A stretch of 64,000 bases of DNA from Kordiimonadales bacterium. Lineage in GTDB: Bacteria > Pseudomonadota > Alphaproteobacteria > Sphingomonadales > Kordiimonadaceae. Position numbers and translations under genes: made by a program. Below the pieces are notes generated by a model. That model saw nothing but the letters and a program-made list of their open reading frames with translations, ran no database searches and was not told the origin of the DNA. Location: contig WFTS01000008.1 of NCBI GenBank assembly GCA_015485385.1, forward strand, positions 19,959-83,958, given 5' to 3'. This document shows positions 48,451-63,989 of the stretch, piece by piece (within the stretch, counting starts at the first letter, position 1; each line of letters starts with the position of its first letter).

Positions 48451-49337
48451 CCAGCCTGTTTTCTATTGTTTTCGTCTTGTTTCACTTGATCCCAGAGTGC
48501 ATCCATTTCAGCCAGATCTGAGACCTCGGGGCTTTTACCCAGAGCGCTGAGTTTGGCCTCGACTGCGCGAAAACGTCGTTCAAACTTGGCATTTGCCAAG
48601 CGCAGACTTTCTTCAGGATCAAGTTTAAAATTCCTTGCTAGATTGCTGATAACAAACAGTAAATCTCCGAATTCCTCTTTCACGGCATCGGGATTGTCGC
48701 CTTTTTTCACTTCCTCTAATAATTCAGCGCATTCTTCTTGTATTTTCTCAATCACTTGCTCGGTCTCTGGCCAATCAAAGCCCACACGAGCTGCCCGATT
48801 TTGGAGCTTAATCGCTCGCAGAAGCGCTGGTAATCCGGGTGTTACACCATCAAGTGCGGATGGGGCCTTGCCTGTTTTAGCCGCTTTTTCAGCGCGTTCT
48901 TCAGCTTTCAAGCGTTCCCACGAGATAATCTGAGCCTCAGCGTCTTTGATGCTCATGTCCCCAAATACATGAGGGTGGCGCCGAACCATTTTTTCACTAA
49001 CCGATTGAACGACATCCTGAAAATCAAAGTGTTTTGCTTCCTTTGCCATTTGGGCATGGAATACTGTTTGGAACAAAAGGTCGCCAAGTTCATCACGCAA
49101 GCTATCCATATCTTTGTTGCGGACCGCGTCATCAACTTCATATGCTTCTTCGATTGTGTAGGGGGCGATACTGGAGAAATCTTGCTCTAGGTCCCATGGG
49201 CAGCCGGTTTCAGGCGTGCGCAGTTTTGCCATAATTTCGAGTAAATCATCGATGGTATATTGTTTTGCCATAGTCCCTGTCACTATTGGGTTGATCCAAA
49301 GCCGAACATCCGGCTTTATTGTCCAAGCGTCAAGCAA
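48447..49337 (-). CDS. mazG: Nucleoside triphosphate pyrophosphohydrolase MazG (likely start at 49271)
   Basis: CPWDLEQDFSSIAPYTIEEAYEV and EEFGDLLF motifs. Confidence 0.95.
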   Translation of the reverse strand: MLDAWTIKPDVRLWINPIVTGTMAKQYTIDDLLEIMAKLRTPETGCPWDLEQDFSSIAPYTIEEAYEVDDAVRNKDMDSLRDELGDLLFQTVFHAQMAKEAKHFDFQDVVQSVSEKMVRRHPHVFGDMSIKDAEAQIISWERLKAEERAEKAAKTGKAPSALDGVTPGLPALLRAIKLQNRAARVGFDWPETEQVIEKIQEECAELLEEVKKGDNPDAVKEEFGDLLFVISNLARNFKLDPEESLRLANAKFERRFRAVEAKLSALGKSPEVSDLAEMDALWDQVKQDENNRKQAG

Positions 49338-49348
49338 TAGAGGGCCTT

Positions 49349-50299
49349 ATGAGCAAATTTTTAAATGTATTTCTGGTTGCTATACTACTGTCTGGGGCTT
49401 CGGTTGCGGAGAGTGTGCCGGCGCCGCTTGATCAGAGTGTGCGCTACGGTATTCAAATACCGAAGGGTGGGTTGCAAGCCTTTCTCCGCTGGAGCCCAAG
49501 CCGTATCCCGTTGATTAGCCATCACCGTGGAGGCCCAGCCCCTGGATACCCGGAAAATGCGCTTGAAACTATGGATAATGCCTTAAAATATGGCCCCGGA
49601 TTGATGGAAATTGATGTCACTCAATTAGCAGACGGTACGTTGGTGCTGATGCATGATGATACCCTTGACCGCACAACGACAGGGCAGGGTCTTGCCTCAG
49701 CAAAAACATGGAATGATATCAAAGATCTGCGTCTGCTGGATGCTGATGGCACGCTGACAAGCTTCCGAGTGCCGCGCCTAACGGATGTGTTGCGCTGGAC
49801 AAAGGGCAGGGCGATCCTAACGCTGGATATCAAGCCGAGCACGGATTTCAAAGCCGTAGCTCAAGCGGTTAAATCAGCCGGAGCAGAAGATTACAGCGCC
49901 GTGATAGCCTATAATTTACAGCAAGCCATAGCCTTTCATAAAATTGCGCCAGACATGCCGATAACGGTTTCGCTTCGTAATGCCAATGAAATTTCCGCCC
50001 TAGAGGCCAGCGGCATAGCCGAGCGAAATGTTATTGCTTGGACAGGCACCAAACAGCTGCCAAAAAGCCATTATGAAGCACTGCACCGCAAGGGCTGGCG
50101 GGTTATTATGGGCACGTTGGGCAGCGGGGAATTGGCTATTGATAAGCAGATTGCCGCCAATGATAATGACGCCCGCTATCTTCAGCTTTATAAGGACGGC
50201 GTGGATATTATTGCCACTGACCGGTTTTGGGCCGTTCAGAACCAGATTAGAAATCCAAATATTTATTATCTCACCCAAATAAAAGTCCCGCTAAAATAA
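49349..50299 (+). CDS. Glycerophosphodiester phosphodiesterase family protein, secreted
   Basis: Signal peptide; HRGGPAPGYPENALETMDNAL, MEIDVTQLADGTLVLMHDDTLDRTT GDPD motifs. Confidence 0.9.
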   Translation: MSKFLNVFLVAILLSGASVAESVPAPLDQSVRYGIQIPKGGLQAFLRWSPSRIPLISHHRGGPAPGYPENALETMDNALKYGPGLMEIDVTQLADGTLVLMHDDTLDRTTTGQGLASAKTWNDIKDLRLLDADGTLTSFRVPRLTDVLRWTKGRAILTLDIKPSTDFKAVAQAVKSAGAEDYSAVIAYNLQQAIAFHKIAPDMPITVSLRNANEISALEASGIAERNVIAWTGTKQLPKSHYEALHRKGWRVIMGTLGSGELAIDKQIAANDNDARYLQLYKDGVDIIATDRFWAVQNQIRNPNIYYLTQIKVPLK

Positions 50300-50303
50300 T
50301 AGG

Positions 50304-51629
50304 TTAGCTGACATTTTTAAGAAATTTCTTTCGGCCAGAGGTGTGGCGTTCACGGGCATCACTTTCAATATAGCGGTCCGTTGTCTGCATAGAGGCGTGG
50401 CCTGCATCATCACGCACATGCTCTCGTGGGCGCCTTTTAACATCTTCTGAAATCGCTGTGTGACGCAACCAGTGAACTGTGGCAACGCGCAATTCCTCTG
50501 CATCAGCCTTATAACCTTCAGTGACCATGCGGTCATAGGCTGCGTCAAAACAGGTTTGCACTATGGTCCGGATTTGTCTCGTACTTGTCACAGGGCCAGT
50601 GCCAAGGTTTTTTGACACCAACGGCGTGGTTTCACCCGGAAACGGCAGCGGTGATAAACCCTGTGATATACGAAACCGCTTTAAAGCAGCTAGCATTTCA
50701 TTACACACAGCAATTCTACGACTTTTATTGCCTTTACCAATCACATGAAACCACCAGTGACCGTCATTATCCTTGCGAAAATCACCCATTGAGGGGGCCG
50801 AGCGCTCATCTGCAACAAGTTCTGAGATGCGCAGATACATGCCCAGTAAACAATTTAGAATAAACAATGATCTTTCATACGTGGCTGGCTTTTCCAGTGC
50901 CATTTGTTCAACCGTCTCAATAACAAAGTCCCACTGCATGGTGCTGATCCGGCGGACAGGAGCTTGCTGTTGGTTTTTGCGGATATATTTGCTTTTCTGG
51001 CGAATAAGCGCCACAGGATTGGCTTCGGTTATATTCTCTTGCATCAGGAAGTTATAGAAAGACGATAAAACCGAAAAAATAGCCTGCACAGACGCTTGCG
51101 ACAGAGTGAAATCACGGCGTTTTGGGGTTTCACCCTTCATATGGGCCGTTTTGCGGACCTGAACCACAAAGGGATGCCAGTCGGGATTGACCCCACGCCA
51201 GCCTTCAAGGCGCTTAAAGCGGGCCACATTTTTTGTGCCAATCCATGATTTCGGTGGTTTCTGGCAAAATTCTACATATGATTCAATATCTTCGCGCTTT
51301 AACGCTCTGACATTTGAACCACGGACGTGCCAAGCCCACTGTAACAAACGTTCAAGTTCACGGCGGTATACGTTAAACGTCGCCGGGCTTCCGTTGTAGC
51401 TGTAGATAAATTTCCAAGCAGCCTCATAGTCTGTGCTTGCGCCGTCGATGGGCTTTTGTTCGGGGAAAAATGCGTCACATGAAAAATCCTTCAATTGAAA
51501 CGGATTTTCAAGATGCTCAAGATTATCAAATATAGGCGACGGTTTACCGGGCGCTGTATGTTTTTGATCCAAATTCCTGTCTCCTAAAACCAGATAATCA
51601 ACGTCATCACCAAACAAACCGCAAATCAA
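50304..51629 (-). CDS. Tyrosine-type site-specific recombinase/integrase
   Basis: Catalytic set visible: LRISEL (R), GKGNKSR (K), HWLRHT (HxxR), DDAGHASMQTTDRYI (H/Y); SAM-like N-terminal core-binding region. Confidence 0.92.
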   Translation of the reverse strand: MICGLFGDDVDYLVLGDRNLDQKHTAPGKPSPIFDNLEHLENPFQLKDFSCDAFFPEQKPIDGASTDYEAAWKFIYSYNGSPATFNVYRRELERLLQWAWHVRGSNVRALKREDIESYVEFCQKPPKSWIGTKNVARFKRLEGWRGVNPDWHPFVVQVRKTAHMKGETPKRRDFTLSQASVQAIFSVLSSFYNFLMQENITEANPVALIRQKSKYIRKNQQQAPVRRISTMQWDFVIETVEQMALEKPATYERSLFILNCLLGMYLRISELVADERSAPSMGDFRKDNDGHWWFHVIGKGNKSRRIAVCNEMLAALKRFRISQGLSPLPFPGETTPLVSKNLGTGPVTSTRQIRTIVQTCFDAAYDRMVTEGYKADAEELRVATVHWLRHTAISEDVKRRPREHVRDDAGHASMQTTDRYIESDARERHTSGRKKFLKNVS

Positions 51630-51666
51630 TCACTTTGCCTACAGGCCAGCATTTCAGCCAAATCAG

Positions 51667-51698
51667 AATATTCCGATAATAATAATTATCGGAATATT
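51667..51698. repeat. 32-bp near-perfect palindrome upstream of the recombinase
   Basis: AATATTCCGATAAT-AATA-ATTATCGGAATATT, 14-bp perfect arms, 37 bp upstream of the recombinase ORF. Confidence 0.9.
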
Positions 51699-51798
51699 AG
51701 TCAATGGATATTTGTGCCCTATTTGCTGCGCGCATGTTGGGATCCTTAAATTAGCTGTATTCCGGCTAAAGTGTTTCTAACCATAGCTTCCCTATTTG

Positions 51799-51829
51799 GT
51801 GGGCCGCAGCTGTCGCGGCTGTTCCCCAC
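51799..51829. repeat. Hairpin-forming inverted repeat
   Basis: GTGGG/CCCAC outer and GCCGC/GCGGC inner arms. Confidence 0.6.
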
Positions 51830-51842
51830 TAGTTTTGGCAAA

Positions 51843-51857
51843 ACCGCTGTCAGCGGT
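51843..51857. repeat. 15-bp palindrome
   Basis: ACCGCTG-T-CAGCGGT, perfect 7-bp arms. Confidence 0.65.
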
Positions 51858-51882
51858 CTAGATATACCACTGGTTTGAAAAT

Positions 51883-52677
51883 TTAATCATGAAGTGCGCT
51901 TGGTATGTCGTGGCTTTGCGCCCAATCACTAAGCGGCGTGAAGGCTTGGTTATAGAGGTTTGCATATGTATCCCCTGTTCGCAGCTTGAGAATTGCTGCG
52001 TCAATAGCTGGAACCAGTCCAGAGTGGCGTTTATTCAAATAGATATGCATCGCCTTGATAGCCAGTGGCCGTGTGCGCAGTTTGATGTTTTTAATCCCCA
52101 ACGAACGGGCGATTTCTAACCCTTGCCAATATTCATAAACAACCACATCAAAGCGCCCTCTATTTAGCAGTTGAAACAGTCGTTCCCCGTTTTCGACTTT
52201 TGTTAAAGTCTTCACATGTTGGGTGTTTTCTTCAACGATCTTCCAACCGATGACAATGCCAACATTCAAGTCGTTGAGGCCCGACCATGTTTCAATTGGT
52301 GTCGCAAAGTCTGGGCGCGTAAAGGCGACAAATTCATAGTCAACCACCGAAGTGGGAACCATGATGAGGTTGGGAAACTGCTTTTCAAGGCCTTTGATGC
52401 GTAAAATATTGCCGTCATCAATGCCGTGCTCAACATTATAAAGGGCGCGCGCTGCGGGACGGCGTATAAAATTATGCTGAATTTTGGCATTATCCAACGC
52501 CAAACCAACCACTTTTATCTGGAATTGGCCCTGAATAGAGTTTTTAGCAAAGCCCATATTGATGCGCAGATTATCCTCTGCACCGCACACTTGTGAGCTA
52601 TTTGCAATCAACACCATGAAGGCAAATAGAGATGTCACGATCAGGCTTGGTCTCGTAAATATCACACAAGCATCCAA
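51883..52677 (-). CDS. Periplasmic solute-binding protein (SBP_bac_3-like)
   Basis: N-terminal hydrophobic signal; size and architecture of an extracellular solute-binding family 3 domain. Confidence 0.7.
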   Translation of the reverse strand: MDACVIFTRPSLIVTSLFAFMVLIANSSQVCGAEDNLRINMGFAKNSIQGQFQIKVVGLALDNAKIQHNFIRRPAARALYNVEHGIDDGNILRIKGLEKQFPNLIMVPTSVVDYEFVAFTRPDFATPIETWSGLNDLNVGIVIGWKIVEENTQHVKTLTKVENGERLFQLLNRGRFDVVVYEYWQGLEIARSLGIKNIKLRTRPLAIKAMHIYLNKRHSGLVPAIDAAILKLRTGDTYANLYNQAFTPLSDWAQSHDIPSALHD

Positions 52678-52685
52678 TAATCACA

Positions 52686-52729
52686 TAAGCCCTTATGATC
52701 AATAGCCTTATGATCAATGACCGGGCTTA
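52686..52729. repeat. Direct repeat pair inside an inverted repeat upstream of the solute-binding protein
   Basis: TAAGCCC ... GGGCTTA enclosing CCTTATGATCAAT x2 (52691-52703, 52706-52718). Confidence 0.7.
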
Positions 52730-52873
52730 CGGATCCTCATATTTGTACAAAATGTACAAAAACACCACTTCCCGCTAGAATTTATCACTTTCGGCGGCCT
52801 AATGCCATATAAACCATGCATTAAGTACAGCTCAAGCGAACAAATCGATAGCTTAGGCGGTTACGAAGGAGGC

Positions 52874-54274
52874 TTAGACGGCTTGAATTTTGCCTGCAAT
52901 TTGGTCCAGCAAGGTCATGACTTCCTTGGAGGCAACATCTGCCTCGGCCACGGCTTTCACCGCACCGTCTATATCGCCTTTACTATAGAGACGTGCCGCC
53001 GTTATGCCCGCCGCATGAACATCTTTATGTGGCTTTTGCAAAGCAGACCATTCCGGTAGGCGCGTGAAAAGAGGCTCATGTTGCTGGTCATACCATTTAC
53101 CAAGGCGGCAGCTATGATGGTCTGCAAGCTCGTTAGCGTCCAAGCGCGTTCTGCCTGCTAACATTTGCGCTAATTTCCGCATCCAGATCATATGGTCAGA
53201 TTTAGCCGCATAAACAACCGCTGCCTTGCCGCTTCGACCAACCAAATCATTGATGCCGGCTACGATCGGCCCCTCGGTTTTCTCTAAAACATCAATAACG
53301 CTGTTCACTTGTTCAACATTGTGCGCGCTCATGCGTGCAATAGTGGAAACTCCGGAAGAAACCTCCTGAGAAGCCTCTGCTTGTTGTCCTAGAATGCTGT
53401 TGATTTCATTGACGCGGCCATTCACAACATCCACCTGCTGTGAGATATTTTGCATCTGCTCGGTAGATTGATTGATAATTTCCCGCCCGGCTGTTGCTTT
53501 TTCATTGCCTTCGTTCATCGCATCAATGATGCCGCTCATTTCTGTGCGTAAATTATCAATGCGGGCGCGAATATTTTCAGTGGCCTGCGCCGTCTGCGTC
53601 GCAAGGCTTTTCACTTCGCTTGCCACAACAGCAAAGCCCCTACCCGCTTCACCCGCACGCGCGGCCTCAATGGTTGCGTTCAGCGCAAGCAAGTTTGTTT
53701 GCTTGGCAATATCTTCAATGTCTTTAACGATTGAGCCAATTTCCTCTGACGCAACCGACAAATCATCCACTTTCGCCGCTGAATTTTGAACCGACGTGGT
53801 AATTTCATCCATCGATGTTTGCGCCCTAAGCGCTGCATCAAGGCCAATGGCTGCACTTTCTGCAACTTGGTTCACGTCACCGGCCGCGCCTTCGGCACTA
53901 GAGGAGATACTGTTGACAGAGGCTGCCATTTCTTCCACCGCTGCAGCGATAGATTGGCTCTGGCTATCAATCTCTTTAATCTCGCGCATCATGCTGGCAA
54001 CACCTGCCACACCTTTGTTGGCCGTCACTGACATATCAACCGTGCGGGCTAGGCTGCCTTCGGCCCGCTTGATCAAAAGCGATGCCAATTGATGCACAAG
54101 CGTGGTTTGTGCACATGTACCCTCAGGCACGCGGTAGTAATCGCCTGCAAGCATGATCTGCAAAGATGTATCGATGTTTTTCAGCTGTGACTCTAAACTC
54201 ATGATTCTGTGATATCCAATAAATTGCAGGTCTATAAAATCGCCTGACTGACAATAAGTGCTAAGGTTAAACAA
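52874..54274 (-). CDS. Soluble methyl-accepting chemotaxis protein with C-terminal CZB zinc-binding domain (likely start at 54202)
   Basis: MCP signalling tip [51 protein letters not shown] motif [11 protein letters not shown]; no TM segment seen. Confidence 0.9.
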
Positions 54275-56612: not shown

Positions 56613-57113
56613 CTAGTTGCGTGGATTTTCCAACAGTGTGTCAACAATTGCACAATCCGGCGTTTCCCCGCCGCTACATTTGTCAACCATCTCCTCAAGT
56701 GCGCTTTTCATATTAGCTAAATCAGCCATTTTGGCAGCTATCAGAGCTATGTTTGACTGCGCCTTATCTTTCACGCTGTCACAGCTTGCTTGGTTTTCTG
56801 TCATTTCTAATAATTCTGAAACCTCTTTATTAGTAAAACCAAGATCCCGCGAGCGTTTGATAAATTTCAGACGTGATAAATGAGCCATTGAATAACACCG
56901 GTGTCCTGCTTTGGTGCGAGGTGGGTCTGGCATCAAGCCGATTTTTTCATAAAAGCGAATTGTCTCAAGGTTCACACCGCTTTCTTTTGCTAAAGCGCCT
57001 CGCGTGTAATCACGTTTTTGAGATCGTACCATTTTATGCTTGCCCCTGTAATTAATACAGGGTTTACGGTACAAAAATCGAAACAAGAAATCAAACCCGT
57101 TTTTTGCAGCCAC
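56613..57113 (-). CDS. merR: MerR family mercuric resistance regulator (likely start at 57032)
   Basis: TRGALAKESGVNLETIRFYEKIGLMPDPPRT HTH; Cys ligands ASCDSVKDKA and CSGGETPDCAI; divergent to merTPA. Confidence 0.92.
   Translation of the reverse strand: MAAKNGFDFLFRFLYRKPCINYRGKHKMVRSQKRDYTRGALAKESGVNLETIRFYEKIGLMPDPPRTKAGHRCYSMAHLSRLKFIKRSRDLGFTNKEVSELLEMTENQASCDSVKDKAQSNIALIAAKMADLANMKSALEEMVDKCSGGETPDCAIVDTLLENPRN
57040..57070 (+). promoter_or_regulatory. MerR-type promoter/operator for merTPA
   Basis: TTGCCC -35, 19-bp spacer, TACGGT -10; dyad CCCTGTA-ATTAA-TACAGGG at 57044-57062 within/overlapping the spacer. Confidence 0.85.
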
Positions 57114-57147
57114 ACAAACCGGGCCAAATAGTAAAGTACATTATGTT

Positions 57148-57543
57148 ATGTCAGATATTGAACAAACCAACAGCGCTATTGAAGAAACGGACAGCGGAAA
57201 GACTTGGACTACAAGTCTTAGTGTGATCGGGGCTATCTTGGCATCCTCCTGCTGTATCCTGCCATTTGTGTTTTTAATGCTAGGGGTTAGCGGTGCCTGG
57301 ATAGGAACGCTAACCGCGCTAGAGCCATATAAAAACTATTTTTCAGCGATAACGCTTGTCTTTATCGGACTTGGTTTCTGGCATATTTATGTGAAGCCCA
57401 AAAAAGAGTGTGCCGCCAACGGTTACTGCGCCACACCAAAATCAGATTATGTAATTAAGACTATATTGTGGGTGTCCACTGTGTTGGTGCTTTTGGCGCT
57501 AACCGTTGATTATTGGGCCCCTATTCTTGGCAACTATATTTAA
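57148..57543 (+). CDS. merT: Mercuric transport protein MerT
   Basis: SSCCILPFVFLMLGVSGAWIGTLTALEPYKNYFSAITLVFIGLGF. Confidence 0.93.
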   Translation: MSDIEQTNSAIEETDSGKTWTTSLSVIGAILASSCCILPFVFLMLGVSGAWIGTLTALEPYKNYFSAITLVFIGLGFWHIYVKPKKECAANGYCATPKSDYVIKTILWVSTVLVLLALTVDYWAPILGNYI

Positions 57544-57559
57544 CCGAAAGGATATTCCT

Positions 57560-57913
57560 ATGAAAAATCTCATGAAAACGGCCTTGGTTGTTTCAGCTAT
57601 ACTAGTTGCAGCTCCTGTTGCGCCAAGCTTTGCTGACGGCGGCCATTCTGACACGCAGACGGCACAAAAGCATGATCAAAAAACGGTCACTTTTTCAATA
57701 GACAAAATGACGTGCGCCATGTGCCCTATCACCGTTCGCAAAGCGATGGAAAAAGTAGACGGTGTGACATCTGTTGTGACCAGCTTTGAAGACAAAACGG
57801 CTGTTGTGACATTTGACCCTGCAAAAGCTGATCTTACAGCAATTGCAAAAGCGTCTGAAATGGCTGGCTATCCTGCCACTTTGGAAGACCACAAAGACCA
57901 TAAAGGCGAGTAA
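57560..57913 (+). CDS. merP: Periplasmic mercury-binding protein MerP
   Basis: Signal peptide; KMTCAMCPITVRKAMEKVDGV HMA motif. Confidence 0.92.
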   Translation: MKNLMKTALVVSAILVAAPVAPSFADGGHSDTQTAQKHDQKTVTFSIDKMTCAMCPITVRKAMEKVDGVTSVVTSFEDKTAVVTFDPAKADLTAIAKASEMAGYPATLEDHKDHKGE

Positions 57914-57915
57914 TT

Positions 57916-59370
57916 ATGGCATTTGACCAACCAACATCAAACTGCTGTAGCAGCGCTGAGGACGGAACCAAAACCCGTATCATGGTTATTGGAGCAGGCT
58001 CGGCTGGGTTTTCTGCTGCCATTACAGCAGCAGACGCTGGTTCAGCGGTGACGCTGGTTGGTGACGGCACGATTGGCGGCACCTGCGTAAACATTGGCTG
58101 TGTGCCGTCTAAAGCCATGATCCGCGCGGTTGAGCCTCTGCATCAAGCGCGAGAGGCCAAGCGGTTTAGCGGCATAGCCTCTCATGCCGAAATCACAGAC
58201 TGGGCAGCACTTGTTGCTCAGAAACAGCATTTGGTTGATGAACTCCGTCAGGCAAAATACAGTGATGTTCTGCCGTCTCATCCTAATGTTGACTATATTG
58301 AAGGTCGCGCCAAACTGGTGGATGGCGGTGTTATGGTGGGCGATATGCTGCACACGCCTGACAAAATTATCATCGCGACAGGTTCGTCAAATAGTGTGCC
58401 GCCGATCCCCGGTATTGATACGGTTGATTATCTTGATAGCACCCGCGCGCTTGAACTGGAGACTTTACCGAAGTCTATGATAATAATCGGGGCTGGTGTG
58501 ATTGGGTGCGAGCTTGGTCAAATGTTTGCGCGCGCTGGCGTTCAGGTTCATTTATGTTGCCGCAGTCGCCTGCTGCCGCATATGGAGCCTGAGATTAGTG
58601 ATCACCTCAAGGCCGCCCTTACAGCCGAAGGTATCGCTGTTTATTGCGGCCTAGATTATCAGCAACTTGGACAAGTTGGCGGGCACATTAAGCTTACCAG
58701 CCACCAAAACGGTCTGACAGTGACGCTTGATGCTGAAACACTGCTTGTAGCAACTGGGCGCACCCCCAACACGGCTGGCATGGGGCTTGAGGATGTAGGT
58801 GTATCCCTAACGCCAAAGGGCGGGATTATCGTTGACCAAAATATGCGCTCCAGCGTGCCAACCATATTTGCGGCGGGCGACGTAACCGGGGACGATATGT
58901 TTGTTTATATGGCCGCATACGGTGCAAGATTGGCCGCGACAGCAGCAACAGCGCAGGATTGTTGCGACACCGAAGCCTATTCAAACGATACAATGCCAGA
59001 GGTGGTTTTCTGTGATCCGCAGGCCGCAACGGTGGGCTTAACAGAAAATACGGCACAGTCAGCCGGTTATAATGTGAAAACCAGTATTCTGACGCTTGAT
59101 CATGTGCCGCGCTATTTGGCTGCACGCGATACCCGGGGCGTTATCAAGCTTGTGGCTGACCGCGATACTGATGCCCTGCTTGGTGCTCATATATTAGCGC
59201 CCGAAGGCGGGGAATTGATCCAAACGGCTGTGATGGCGATCAAATCCGGCATGACAACAAAGGCCCTTGCAGCAACCGTTTTTCCGTACCTTACAGGGGT
59301 TGAAGGCCTGAAATTGGCCGCGCAAACCTTTGACAAGGATGTCAGCACCCTATCCTGCTGCGCGGGCTGA
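57916..59370 (+). CDS. merA: Mercury(II) reductase, no N-terminal HMA domain
   Basis: GGTCVNIGCVPSKAMIRA active site, FAD/NAD motifs, C-terminal vicinal Cys STLSCCAG. Confidence 0.95.
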   Translation: MAFDQPTSNCCSSAEDGTKTRIMVIGAGSAGFSAAITAADAGSAVTLVGDGTIGGTCVNIGCVPSKAMIRAVEPLHQAREAKRFSGIASHAEITDWAALVAQKQHLVDELRQAKYSDVLPSHPNVDYIEGRAKLVDGGVMVGDMLHTPDKIIIATGSSNSVPPIPGIDTVDYLDSTRALELETLPKSMIIIGAGVIGCELGQMFARAGVQVHLCCRSRLLPHMEPEISDHLKAALTAEGIAVYCGLDYQQLGQVGGHIKLTSHQNGLTVTLDAETLLVATGRTPNTAGMGLEDVGVSLTPKGGIIVDQNMRSSVPTIFAAGDVTGDDMFVYMAAYGARLAATAATAQDCCDTEAYSNDTMPEVVFCDPQAATVGLTENTAQSAGYNVKTSILTLDHVPRYLAARDTRGVIKLVADRDTDALLGAHILAPEGGELIQTAVMAIKSGMTTKALAATVFPYLTGVEGLKLAAQTFDKDVSTLSCCAG

Positions 59371-60643: not shown

Positions 60644-61888
60644 TTAAACCGCAGAAGTCTGTGAGTTTCTCTTTAGAGGAAGCGTTAATATAACGGCCAA
60701 AGCCACCATTATCGCCGATGCTATCAGGCAATAGACCAGCCCGAAATATTGGTAAATTAGGCCAGATAACAAGGTGCCTACCAAGCGCCCAATGGCATTG
60801 GCCGTATAATAAAAACCTACATTCAGCGCCACTTTATCATGGTCGGAAAAGGCAACAATCAAGTAGGAATGCAAGGCGGAATTGATTGCGAAGATCAATC
60901 CAAAGGCTATTAATCCCACGATTAAAAATATGGTCCGGTTGAACGAAATTGCAGTGTCACCCTTGGTTACAGCAAGGCCGGTTGCCAGTATAATGACACT
61001 GAACATCAAGATAGTTCCCCATATCTTAGCCGCTAAAATGGCTCCTTCACTCTCTTTGGTTTTTCTCAAAAAGTTCGGCACTAGCGCTTGCGCCGTCCCG
61101 TATCCAATGATCCAAAGAGCCATGAATCCTCCAATTTGATCAAAGCTCCAGCCAGCCTCACTTGCCAGAAACACAGGCAAACCAACAACAAACCACACAT
61201 CCCGGCTTGCGAATAAAAATATTCTTGCGGCTGATAAATAGTTAATTTCTCGCGTTTTTGAGAATAAATCTTTGCCGCGTATCTTGCTGCTGGCCTTTCC
61301 CAAATCAGATTTCAAGCTTGTCCAACAAACGCCCAGAACCAGCAGTAAAGCTGCCGCCATTGTGTATAGAGACCCGGCAAAGCCTATCGCTTCCAACAAG
61401 GCCCCTCCGATGAAAAAGCCCAGCCCTTTCAAGGCGTTCTTAGATCCAGTTAATCTAGAAACCCACTTGAAAAGCAACCCTTCACCGCTTTCGTTTACAA
61501 CCAGCTTCACCGCTGACTTGCTGCTCATTTTTGTGAGATCTTTGGCAATACCAGACAAGCCTTGCGCTGACATCACATAAATAACAGACGCCGCGCCGAC
61601 TAAGGAATTTGGTAATGCCGATAACATTAAAAGCGCTGCAACCTGAAGGCCAAGGCCAGAAAAAAGCGTGACCCTTAGGCCAAAACGCGCCCCAACCCAA
61701 CCGCCGACAAAGTTGGTTACAATTCCCATCACTTCATAGAGAAGAAACAGGAATGCCAAATCTAATGGGCTATATCCAAGGCCGTGAAAATGAAGCAACA
61801 CTAACATACGCAGTGCACCGTCTGTTAGCGTAAACCCCCAGTAAGCCGCTGTTACAACTGCATAATTTTTTGTGTCATTATTTTGCAT
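60644..61888 (-). CDS. arsJ: Organoarsenical (1-arseno-3-phosphoglycerate) efflux MFS permease ArsJ
   Basis: MFS protein YAVVTAAYWGFTLTDGALRMLVLLHFHGLGYSPLDLAFLFLLYE; immediately follows a GAPDH gene and precedes arsR. Confidence 0.9.
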   Translation of the reverse strand: MQNNDTKNYAVVTAAYWGFTLTDGALRMLVLLHFHGLGYSPLDLAFLFLLYEVMGIVTNFVGGWVGARFGLRVTLFSGLGLQVAALLMLSALPNSLVGAASVIYVMSAQGLSGIAKDLTKMSSKSAVKLVVNESGEGLLFKWVSRLTGSKNALKGLGFFIGGALLEAIGFAGSLYTMAAALLLVLGVCWTSLKSDLGKASSKIRGKDLFSKTREINYLSAARIFLFASRDVWFVVGLPVFLASEAGWSFDQIGGFMALWIIGYGTAQALVPNFLRKTKESEGAILAAKIWGTILMFSVIILATGLAVTKGDTAISFNRTIFLIVGLIAFGLIFAINSALHSYLIVAFSDHDKVALNVGFYYTANAIGRLVGTLLSGLIYQYFGLVYCLIASAIMVALAVILTLPLKRNSQTSAV

Positions 61889-61890
61889 GG

Positions 61891-62901
61891 CTAAATATCT
61901 GCTGCTATCATCGCGGTTAGATCTGCCATGCGGTTCACATATCCCCATTCATTATCGTACCAAGCATATAGTTTTAGCTGCGTGCCATTTACCACCATGG
62001 TTGATAAAGCATCAATGATGCTTGAGCGCGGATCATTGGTGTAATCAGCGGAAACAAGTGGGCGTTCTTCATAGCCTAAAATACCCTTCAGGTTGGTCTT
62101 TGAAGCCTCCTTAAACAGGGCATTTACAGCTTCAACCGTCGTTTCTTGCTCTAGTTCAAACACACAGTCTGTCAATGACCCGTTCAAGAGCGGCACCCGA
62201 ACCGCATGGCCATTTAAGCGGCCTTTAAGTTCAGGATATATCAAGGCAATCGCCGTTGCAGAGCCTGTTGTTGTTGGGATTAAGGAATTTAAGCAAGACC
62301 GTGCGCGGCGCAAATCTTTATGCGGGGCATCAACGATAACCTGAGTATTGGTTACATCATGGATCGTGGTTATGGACCCATGTTTGATGCCAAGTTCCTT
62401 GTGCACCACTTTTACAACGGGTGCCAAACAATTGGTGGTGCAAGACGCAGCGGTAACAAGATCATGCTGTGCAGGGTTATACAAATGGTCATTAACGCCC
62501 ATCACCAAATTTAAGGCGCTATCCTCTTTCACTGGGGCAGAAACCAAAATTTTTCTGATACCCGCATCATAATAAGGCTGAAGGCTGGCGCGTGTCTTGA
62601 ACTTGCCCGAGCATTCGATCACAATATCAACATCGTCTCCGGTCCAGTTTAGCTCAGCGGGGGACAGTTTTTCACTGAAGGAAATCTTGGTGCCACTAAT
62701 GGCAATAAAGCCCTGCCCCGCCTCAACAGGCTTGTCCCACCGGCCGTGAACACTATCAAACTCCAGCAAATGAGTAGCGGTTTCTACACCGCCTTTAGGC
62801 TCGTTGATGGCAACGATTTTAACGTCAGGGTTATCCCATATTGCGCGTACAAACAAACGGCCCATGCGGCCAAAGCCATTGATAGCAATGCGAACACTCA
62901 T
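61891..62901 (-). CDS. Glyceraldehyde-3-phosphate dehydrogenase, arsenic-cluster type
   Basis: [29 protein letters not shown]-type [24 protein letters not shown] motifs; start 62901. Confidence 0.94.
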
Positions 62902-62920
62902 AATGGTTCCTTGATTTAGA

Positions 62921-62950
62921 TATATCGATAATCGTGGATATAACGATATA
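62921..62950. promoter_or_regulatory. Putative ArsR operator upstream of gapdh-arsJ-arsR
   Basis: TATATCG ... CGATATA inverted repeat and tandem GATATAAC-GATATAAC, 20 bp upstream of the GAPDH start. Confidence 0.4.
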
Positions 62951-63003
62951 ACGCGGCGCAATCAAGCTAAACATTTTAAGGGATCATAATTTGGTAAAAG
63001 CCC

Positions 63004-63432
63004 TTAATCTTGGCCGTGGTTTTGGCACAAACGGTGGTCAGACAAGAGCTTGATGATTTGGCAGTCGGACACCGATCCGCCAGCACACGCGGTGACCATG
63101 CGCTCTAGTTCTGCTTTCAAAACCATCAAGGAGCTAATCTTTTCATTCACTTCCGCCAGATGATTTCGGGCTATAGTATCAATATCAGCACATGTTTGAT
63201 CAGGAACATCAGACAAGCTTAATAAGGCCCTAATATCATCAAGTGAAAACCCAAGCTCACGGCTGTGCCGGATGAAAGTTAAGCGCTCAAGGTGGCTGTC
63301 CGTGTAGATACGGCGATTGTTTGCGGCTCGTAAAGCCGCAGGCATGATACCAATATCTTCATAATAGCGGATTGTTTGAACTTTGCATTTTGCGCGCTTC
63401 GCTAAGGCGCCAATCATAAATTTTTCTGACAT
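63004..63432 (-). CDS. MerR family metal-responsive regulator
   Basis: IGALAKRAKCKVQTIRYYEDIGIMP HTH; TCADI and CAGGSVSDCQII Cys positions. Confidence 0.88.
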   Translation of the reverse strand: MSEKFMIGALAKRAKCKVQTIRYYEDIGIMPAALRAANNRRIYTDSHLERLTFIRHSRELGFSLDDIRALLSLSDVPDQTCADIDTIARNHLAEVNEKISSLMVLKAELERMVTACAGGSVSDCQIIKLLSDHRLCQNHGQD

Positions 63433-63491: not shown

Positions 63492-63989
63492 TTACTGCCG
63501 TAAAATCAGCGCATCTCCGCGAAACTCTACACTGGCAAACCGGTCGAGTAGCGACATCCCAAGTAATGATCCAGCCATTTCAGAGCCGTTTACCGTGATA
63601 GGAATATCATAAAACACAGCGTCCCCTATGTTTATCCGGTCTGCATGGACCTGTGCAAACTTAACATCGCCATTAGCGGTTTGGGCGCTTTGATCAAATG
63701 TTAGATTTTGTTCATCAAAGCCCACACGTTTTGCGTCCTCAGGGCTAAGGACAACATTAGATGCGCCTGTATCTACCATCATAAACACTGGGGTTCCGTT
63801 TACATATGCTCGCAGCCAAAAATGGCCGTCTCTACCACGTTTGACAATCAACCCTTCAGCTGTTGTCGAAACCCCAACCGGATCAAGTGCAGACATGAAG
63901 CGTTCGCTGAAATCAGATTGGTAAAGATAAAATGTCGAAATACCTAATATGATAGCGGCCCATAATCCGGCAACTTTTATAGTTTTCAT
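63492..63989 (-). CDS. Retropepsin-like aspartic protease family (clan AA, TIGR02281-like), membrane anchored
   Basis: N-terminal TM; VFMMVDTGASNVVLSPEDAKRVG and GSLLGMSLLDRF motifs. Confidence 0.85.
   Translation of the reverse strand: MKTIKVAGLWAAIILGISTFYLYQSDFSERFMSALDPVGVSTTAEGLIVKRGRDGHFWLRAYVNGTPVFMMVDTGASNVVLSPEDAKRVGFDEQNLTFDQSAQTANGDVKFAQVHADRINIGDAVFYDIPITVNGSEMAGSLLGMSLLDRFASVEFRGDALILRQ

What the first reader, a model, noticed from the sequence alone, without database searches (positions are those of the whole stretch)
51630..51698. Orphan tyrosine recombinase with an adjacent lox/dif-like 32-bp palindrome
The palindrome AATATTCCGATAAT-AATA-ATTATCGGAATATT lies 37 bp upstream of an intact tyrosine recombinase. 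Read as 13-bp arms with a 6-bp spacer (TAATAA) it has the geometry of a simple tyrosine recombinase core site (loxP is 13-8-13, dif is 11-6-11). No excisionase, relaxase or phage gene is adjacent. Inference: a self-contained recombinase and target, either an inversion/integration site or an autoregulatory operator.
Basis: partly seen in the sequence, partly recalled or inferred. Interest (0 to 1): 0.6.

Follow-up and report, generated by a model that had tools for sequence, protein, structure and literature searches.

The report
Borrowed chromosome-dimer resolution system (XerL/dif-like)
This bacterium has lost the standard two-enzyme XerC/XerD machinery that untangles fused sister chromosomes and appears instead to use one borrowed recombinase that cuts a perfect palindrome lying next to its own gene, at the point where DNA replication ends.

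Summary
The palindrome is real and perfect (51667-51698, 14-4-14), unique in its genome, and lies upstream of an intact tyrosine recombinase. It is best explained as a dif site: the target of a single-recombinase chromosome-dimer-resolution system of the XerL type, so far described only in Legionellales (PMC9765430).

Evidence:
1. The same site, consensus nnnnnTCCGATAN-NTNTNN-NTATYGGAnnnnn (13-6-13, asymmetric spacer), sits upstream of orthologues in 8 gene-linked lineages, 37-70% identical.
2. It marks the terminus. GC skew switches about 1.5 kb away, and all 18 KOPS motifs on the 84-kb contig converge on it.
3. In one relative (G553) gene and site are 210 kb apart, and the site stays near the skew switch (17.6 kb). 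This argues strongly against an operator.
4. The host has cleanly lost xerC, xerD and canonical dif. Its genus mates keep all three, with dif in the same GDPD-to-protease interval.
5. Close-orthologue hosts likewise lack canonical dif and a canonical XerC/XerD pair.
6. The protein nests inside a gammaproteobacterial clade, implying horizontal acquisition.

Not shown: recombination activity, FtsK dependence, Legionella site identity.

The parts
51667..51698 (.). dif-like core site: arms AATATTCCGATAA / TTATCGGAATATT (13 bp), spacer TAATAA on + strand (TTATTA on recombinase strand)
   Evidence: conserved beside orthologues; unique in genome
50304..51572 (-). XerL-like tyrosine recombinase (about 423 aa, TTG start; longest ORF to 51629)
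   Evidence: Phage_int_SAM_1 above its cut-off and Phage_integrase just below it; catalytic R/K/HxxR/H/Y; groups with Legionella XerL-locus gene
49319..50299 (+). GDPD gene: conserved left boundary of the terminus interval (canonical dif lies 15-28 kb from it in genus mates)
63492..63989 (-). aspartyl-protease gene: right boundary; its homologue lies just past canonical dif in G024 and G011 and 6.6 kb past it in G009
49804..53638 (.). interval in which KOPS (GGGNAGGG) polarity flips; cumulative GC skew maximum at 50231

Best explanation
A single-recombinase dif/Xer chromosome-dimer-resolution module of the XerL family. After recombination between sister chromosomes produces a dimer, two copies of the 32-bp site are present in it. 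Four copies of one recombinase bind the four identical arms; strand exchange across the asymmetric 6-bp spacer turns the dimer into two monomers, presumably brought together and activated by the FtsK translocase, which tracks along converging KOPS. The module was acquired horizontally, apparently from Gammaproteobacteria, landed in or beside the old dif interval and replaced XerC, XerD and dif, which were lost. Shown by sequence: the site and its conservation, terminus position, loss of XerCD/dif, phylogenetic nesting. Inferred: binding, recombination, FtsK activation, and order of gain and loss.
For: Site conserved 69-164 nt before the aligned start of orthologues from 8 gene-linked lineages, down to 37% protein identity, with invariant TCCGATA arm core and two invariant spacer Ts that break symmetry. 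Terminus: window cumulative GC-skew maximum at 50231; 13 + strand KOPS all left and 5 - strand all right, no exceptions; skew also switches at the gene/site in G788 and G704. G553: gene at 2.068 Mb, site at 1.858 Mb, skew maximum at 1.876 Mb. G000 has no XerC/XerD match at 1e-30, mates have both; intact synteny with xerD and xerC missing. Canonical dif present in four genus mates near GDPD, absent in G000 and all close-orthologue hosts. Protein groups with the L. adelaidensis gene beside tig and four tRNAs. Legionella XerL alone is necessary and sufficient for recombination at a palindromic dif (PMC9765430).
Against: No recombination or dimer-resolution data. The genome is a 93% complete, 167-contig draft and the contig ends 11 bp beyond the protease gene. 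The E. coli KOPS consensus was assumed. FtsK was not examined. In G553 the site is 17.6 kb from the skew maximum. No site was found within the held sequence near the gene in G538, the Legionellales MAG or L. adelaidensis, where gene and site may be unlinked. The Legionella dif sequence itself was not available for comparison.
Confidence: 0.88

Rival explanations
1. The palindrome is an operator: a repressor (or the recombinase itself) binds it to control transcription of the recombinase gene.
For: It lies 94 bp upstream of the likely start, and perfect palindromes are typical of dimeric repressors. Dual use as site and operator is possible.
Against: In G553 the site is 210 kb from the gene but 17.6 kb from the skew maximum. 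In G838 it is about 1.9 kb upstream of the gene. The spacer is conserved and always asymmetric. The site is unique in the genome. The host lost dif and XerCD.
Confidence: 0.04
2. The gene and site are the integration module (att site) of a mobile element inserted at the terminus.
For: Relatives occur on plasmids and in Tn3-type elements. G690 has two sites about 17.4 kb apart beside dif. The recombinase is sporadic in the genus, and the right flank carries mercury-resistance genes.
Against: Only one site copy in the genome, so no flanking pair. Same terminus position in several unrelated complete genomes. XerCD and dif are gone, which an ordinary integrated element does not explain.
Confidence: 0.06
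3. The palindrome acts as a transcription terminator or RNA hairpin and the recombinase is an unrelated relic.
For: Folds stably as RNA (z = -4.4).
Against: No T-run after the stem on either strand. The recombinase is intact with all catalytic residues. The arm sequence, not only pairing, is conserved across lineages.
Confidence: 0.02

Closest known systems
XerL/dif of Legionellales (PMC9765430)
   Same: Single tyrosine recombinase in the same protein group; palindromic, low-GC, intergenic site at the replication terminus; XerC/XerD and canonical dif absent.
   Different: Host is outside Legionellales (genus mates carry an ordinary XerC/XerD/dif set); recombinase gene and site are adjacent, whereas in L. 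pneumophila they are over 400 kb apart; arms 13 bp rather than 10-12.
XerH/difH (Campylobacter, Helicobacter)
   Same: One recombinase genetically linked to its terminus site.
   Different: difH arms show only partial dyad symmetry (per PMC9765430); the proteins were not compared here directly.
XerS/difSL (streptococci, lactococci)
   Same: One recombinase next to its dif-like site as a module.
   Different: Different hosts; site arms only partly symmetric (per PMC9765430); the proteins were not compared here directly.
XerCD/dif
   Same: 6-bp spacer, ATAA...TTAT inner arms, terminus position; right arm TTATCGGAA is close to the genus dif arm TTATGGGAA.
   Different: Two recombinases and non-identical arms; here one recombinase and identical arms, and XerC, XerD and dif are lost.

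Membership tests
XerL/dif (Legionellales type) | Recombinase is an XerL orthologue | tested here: met
   53% identical to the L. adelaidensis gene beside tig and four tRNAs; joins it in a group with support 96/89, apart from XerC/XerD. That this is the lpg1867 locus rests on my memory of the gene order.
XerL/dif (Legionellales type) | Site with perfect inverted repeats at the replication terminus | tested here: met
   Perfect arms; skew and KOPS switch.
XerL/dif (Legionellales type) | Host lacks XerC, XerD and canonical dif | tested here: met
XerL/dif (Legionellales type) | Site sequence homologous to Legionella dif | not tested
   The sequence is only in a figure and supplement of PMC9765430; not held as text.
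XerL/dif (Legionellales type) | Recombinase necessary and sufficient for recombination at the site | not testable with these tools
   Needs an experiment.
XerCD/dif | XerC plus XerD and a canonical 28-bp dif | tested here: not met
   No XerC/XerD profile match at 1e-30; no dif within 3 mismatches.
XerH/difH or XerS/difSL | Recombinase belongs to the XerH or XerS group | tested here: inconclusive
   No solved structure matched by sequence at 0.001; a weak XerS-model match of 25.5 bits against a cut-off of 267; no direct tree with XerH or XerS.
Integrase of a mobile element | Element flanked by two copies of the site | tested here: not met
   Single copy in the assembly.

The most novel reading that the evidence does not exclude
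Chromosome dimer resolution can be taken over: XerL-type recombinases first settle beside canonical dif with their own site (as in five sampled genomes that keep XerCD, with the second site 0.05-1.6 kb from dif), and in several lineages, including this one, the newcomer then displaces XerC, XerD and dif altogether. The replacement spreads horizontally across classes and would account for large proteobacterial genomes long listed as lacking dif/Xer.
Probability: 0.5. Interest if true: 0.78.

Novelty: new member of a known kind. Interest (0 to 1): 0.62.

Why it matters
Dimer resolution is core chromosome biology and XerCD/dif is nearly universal in Proteobacteria. A clean case of loss of both recombinases and dif, with a horizontally gained one-enzyme replacement in the same interval, shows that this machinery can be swapped. 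It extends XerL beyond Legionellales, and offers a candidate answer to the open question in PMC2731167 of how large genomes without dif/Xer manage. The tandem arrangement beside dif in other genomes gives a testable intermediate.

Tried and rejected
Tn3 resolvase idea: a 51% homologue in genus mate G019 sits beside a Tn3-type tnpA, and Tn4401 TnpR is a distant relative; no transposase ORF was seen beside the window gene, and the site/terminus evidence fits dif better. General operator idea: core pattern absent in genus mates. A search of viral contigs found no relative and phage records only three weak ones. phmmer against PDB gave nothing. One genome-contig scan returned only a Legionellales MAG, so hosts of most orthologues remain unnamed. 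Literature searches for XerL found only two papers, one of them PMC9765430; subscription journals are not held. A two-base dummy region (L212) was fetched by mistake and not used.

Full report
Observation. The palindrome stands exactly as described at 51667-51698. It is the only perfect palindrome of its class in the window, none occurred in 20 controls, and it has no second copy in the genome. The gene on the - strand has all tyrosine-recombinase catalytic residues. Its likely start is TTG at 51572, so the site lies 94 bp upstream.

Conservation. In homologues 60-70% identical the same site recurs upstream of the gene, and also in a 37% homologue. Read on the recombinase strand, nine lineages align as 13-bp arms and a 6-bp spacer. 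Arm positions 6-12 (TCCGATA) are invariant, and so are spacer positions 2 and 4 (T), which makes every spacer asymmetric. That is expected of a recombination core and is hard to explain for a repressor operator.

Terminus. The window's cumulative GC skew peaks at 50231, 1.45 kb from the site. On the whole 84-kb contig the 13 GGGNAGGG motifs on the + strand all lie left of 49805 and the 5 on the - strand all lie right of 53637. In G788 and G704, single-contig genomes, skew switches at the gene/site. In G553 the gene is at 2.068 Mb, but the skew switch is near 1.876 Mb. Fetching that stretch revealed a perfect site, ACTATTTCCGATAA-taacat-TTATCGGAAATAGT, at 1.858 Mb. The site therefore tracks the terminus, not the gene. 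In G838 gene and site are about 1.9 kb apart.

Loss of XerCD/dif. The XerD profile finds a canonical pair in each of four well-assembled genus mates and nothing in G000 at 1e-30. Synteny shows this is not a gap in the assembly. In G000 aroK, a conserved hypothetical gene, accA and a ribonucleotide-reductase-like gene are in order on one contig, with a 716-aa penicillin-acylase-like ORF (named from its sequence, not tested) where xerD should be. The coq9 gene is followed directly by the ada genes, without xerC. Canonical dif (CGCATAATTTATATTATGGGAA) occurs once in each of these four mates and not in G000. In G024, G011 and G009 it lies between the GDPD gene and the aspartyl-protease gene; in G000 the same interval holds the recombinase and palindrome. 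Hosts of the close orthologues likewise lack canonical dif, and none has a canonical XerC/XerD pair; some have weaker Xer-like matches, best 1e-60 in G407.

Origin. In a 37-row tree the window protein nests inside a well-supported clade of orthologues from another family of the same phylum (99/98), far from XerC/XerD, and groups with the L. adelaidensis gene (96/89).

Comparison. PMC9765430 describes XerL/dif in Legionellales: one recombinase, palindromic dif at the terminus, no XerCD; the authors' stated ortholog search was against Legionellales. PMC2731167 lists Saccharophagus degradans and Colwellia psychrerythraea as large genomes without dif/Xer and asks whether a substitute exists. The present system fits as such a substitute; whether those species carry it was not tested.

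Intermediate state. Five genomes that keep XerCD and dif carry a 32-39% homologue and a related site (TGCCGATAA-N6-TTATCGGCA) within about 0.05-1.6 kb of canonical dif: G632, G690, G678, G767, G605. G690 has a second copy 17.4 kb away. This suggests coexistence before takeover, but function is untested.

Limits. No activity data; draft genome; KOPS consensus borrowed from E. coli; FtsK not examined.

Noticed in passing
window 56613-59370: Mercury-resistance cluster (MerR-family gene, MerT by Pfam, a MerP-like and a MerA-like gene) about 5 kb from the site.
   Followed up: partly
window 60644-63432: MFS transporter, GAPDH and a MerR-family regulator in a row; resembles an ArsJ/GAPDH arsenic module (from memory, not tested).
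   Followed up: partly
L187, L188, L189, L190, L191: XerCD-bearing genomes carry a related recombinase and a second palindromic site within 2 kb of canonical dif; G690 has two such sites 17.4 kb apart.
   Followed up: partly
L003/L079: Genus mate G019 carries a 51% homologue beside a Tn3-type transposase, with a short 7-6-7 palindrome between them.
   Followed up: partly
L032 4727-4750: Pseudomonas amygdali megaplasmid pMPPla107 has a close match to the site 1.3 kb upstream of a 40% homologue: possible plasmid dimer resolution.
   Followed up: no
L216 4768-6918: A penicillin-acylase-like ORF occupies the place of xerD between accA and its usual upstream neighbour.
   Followed up: partly
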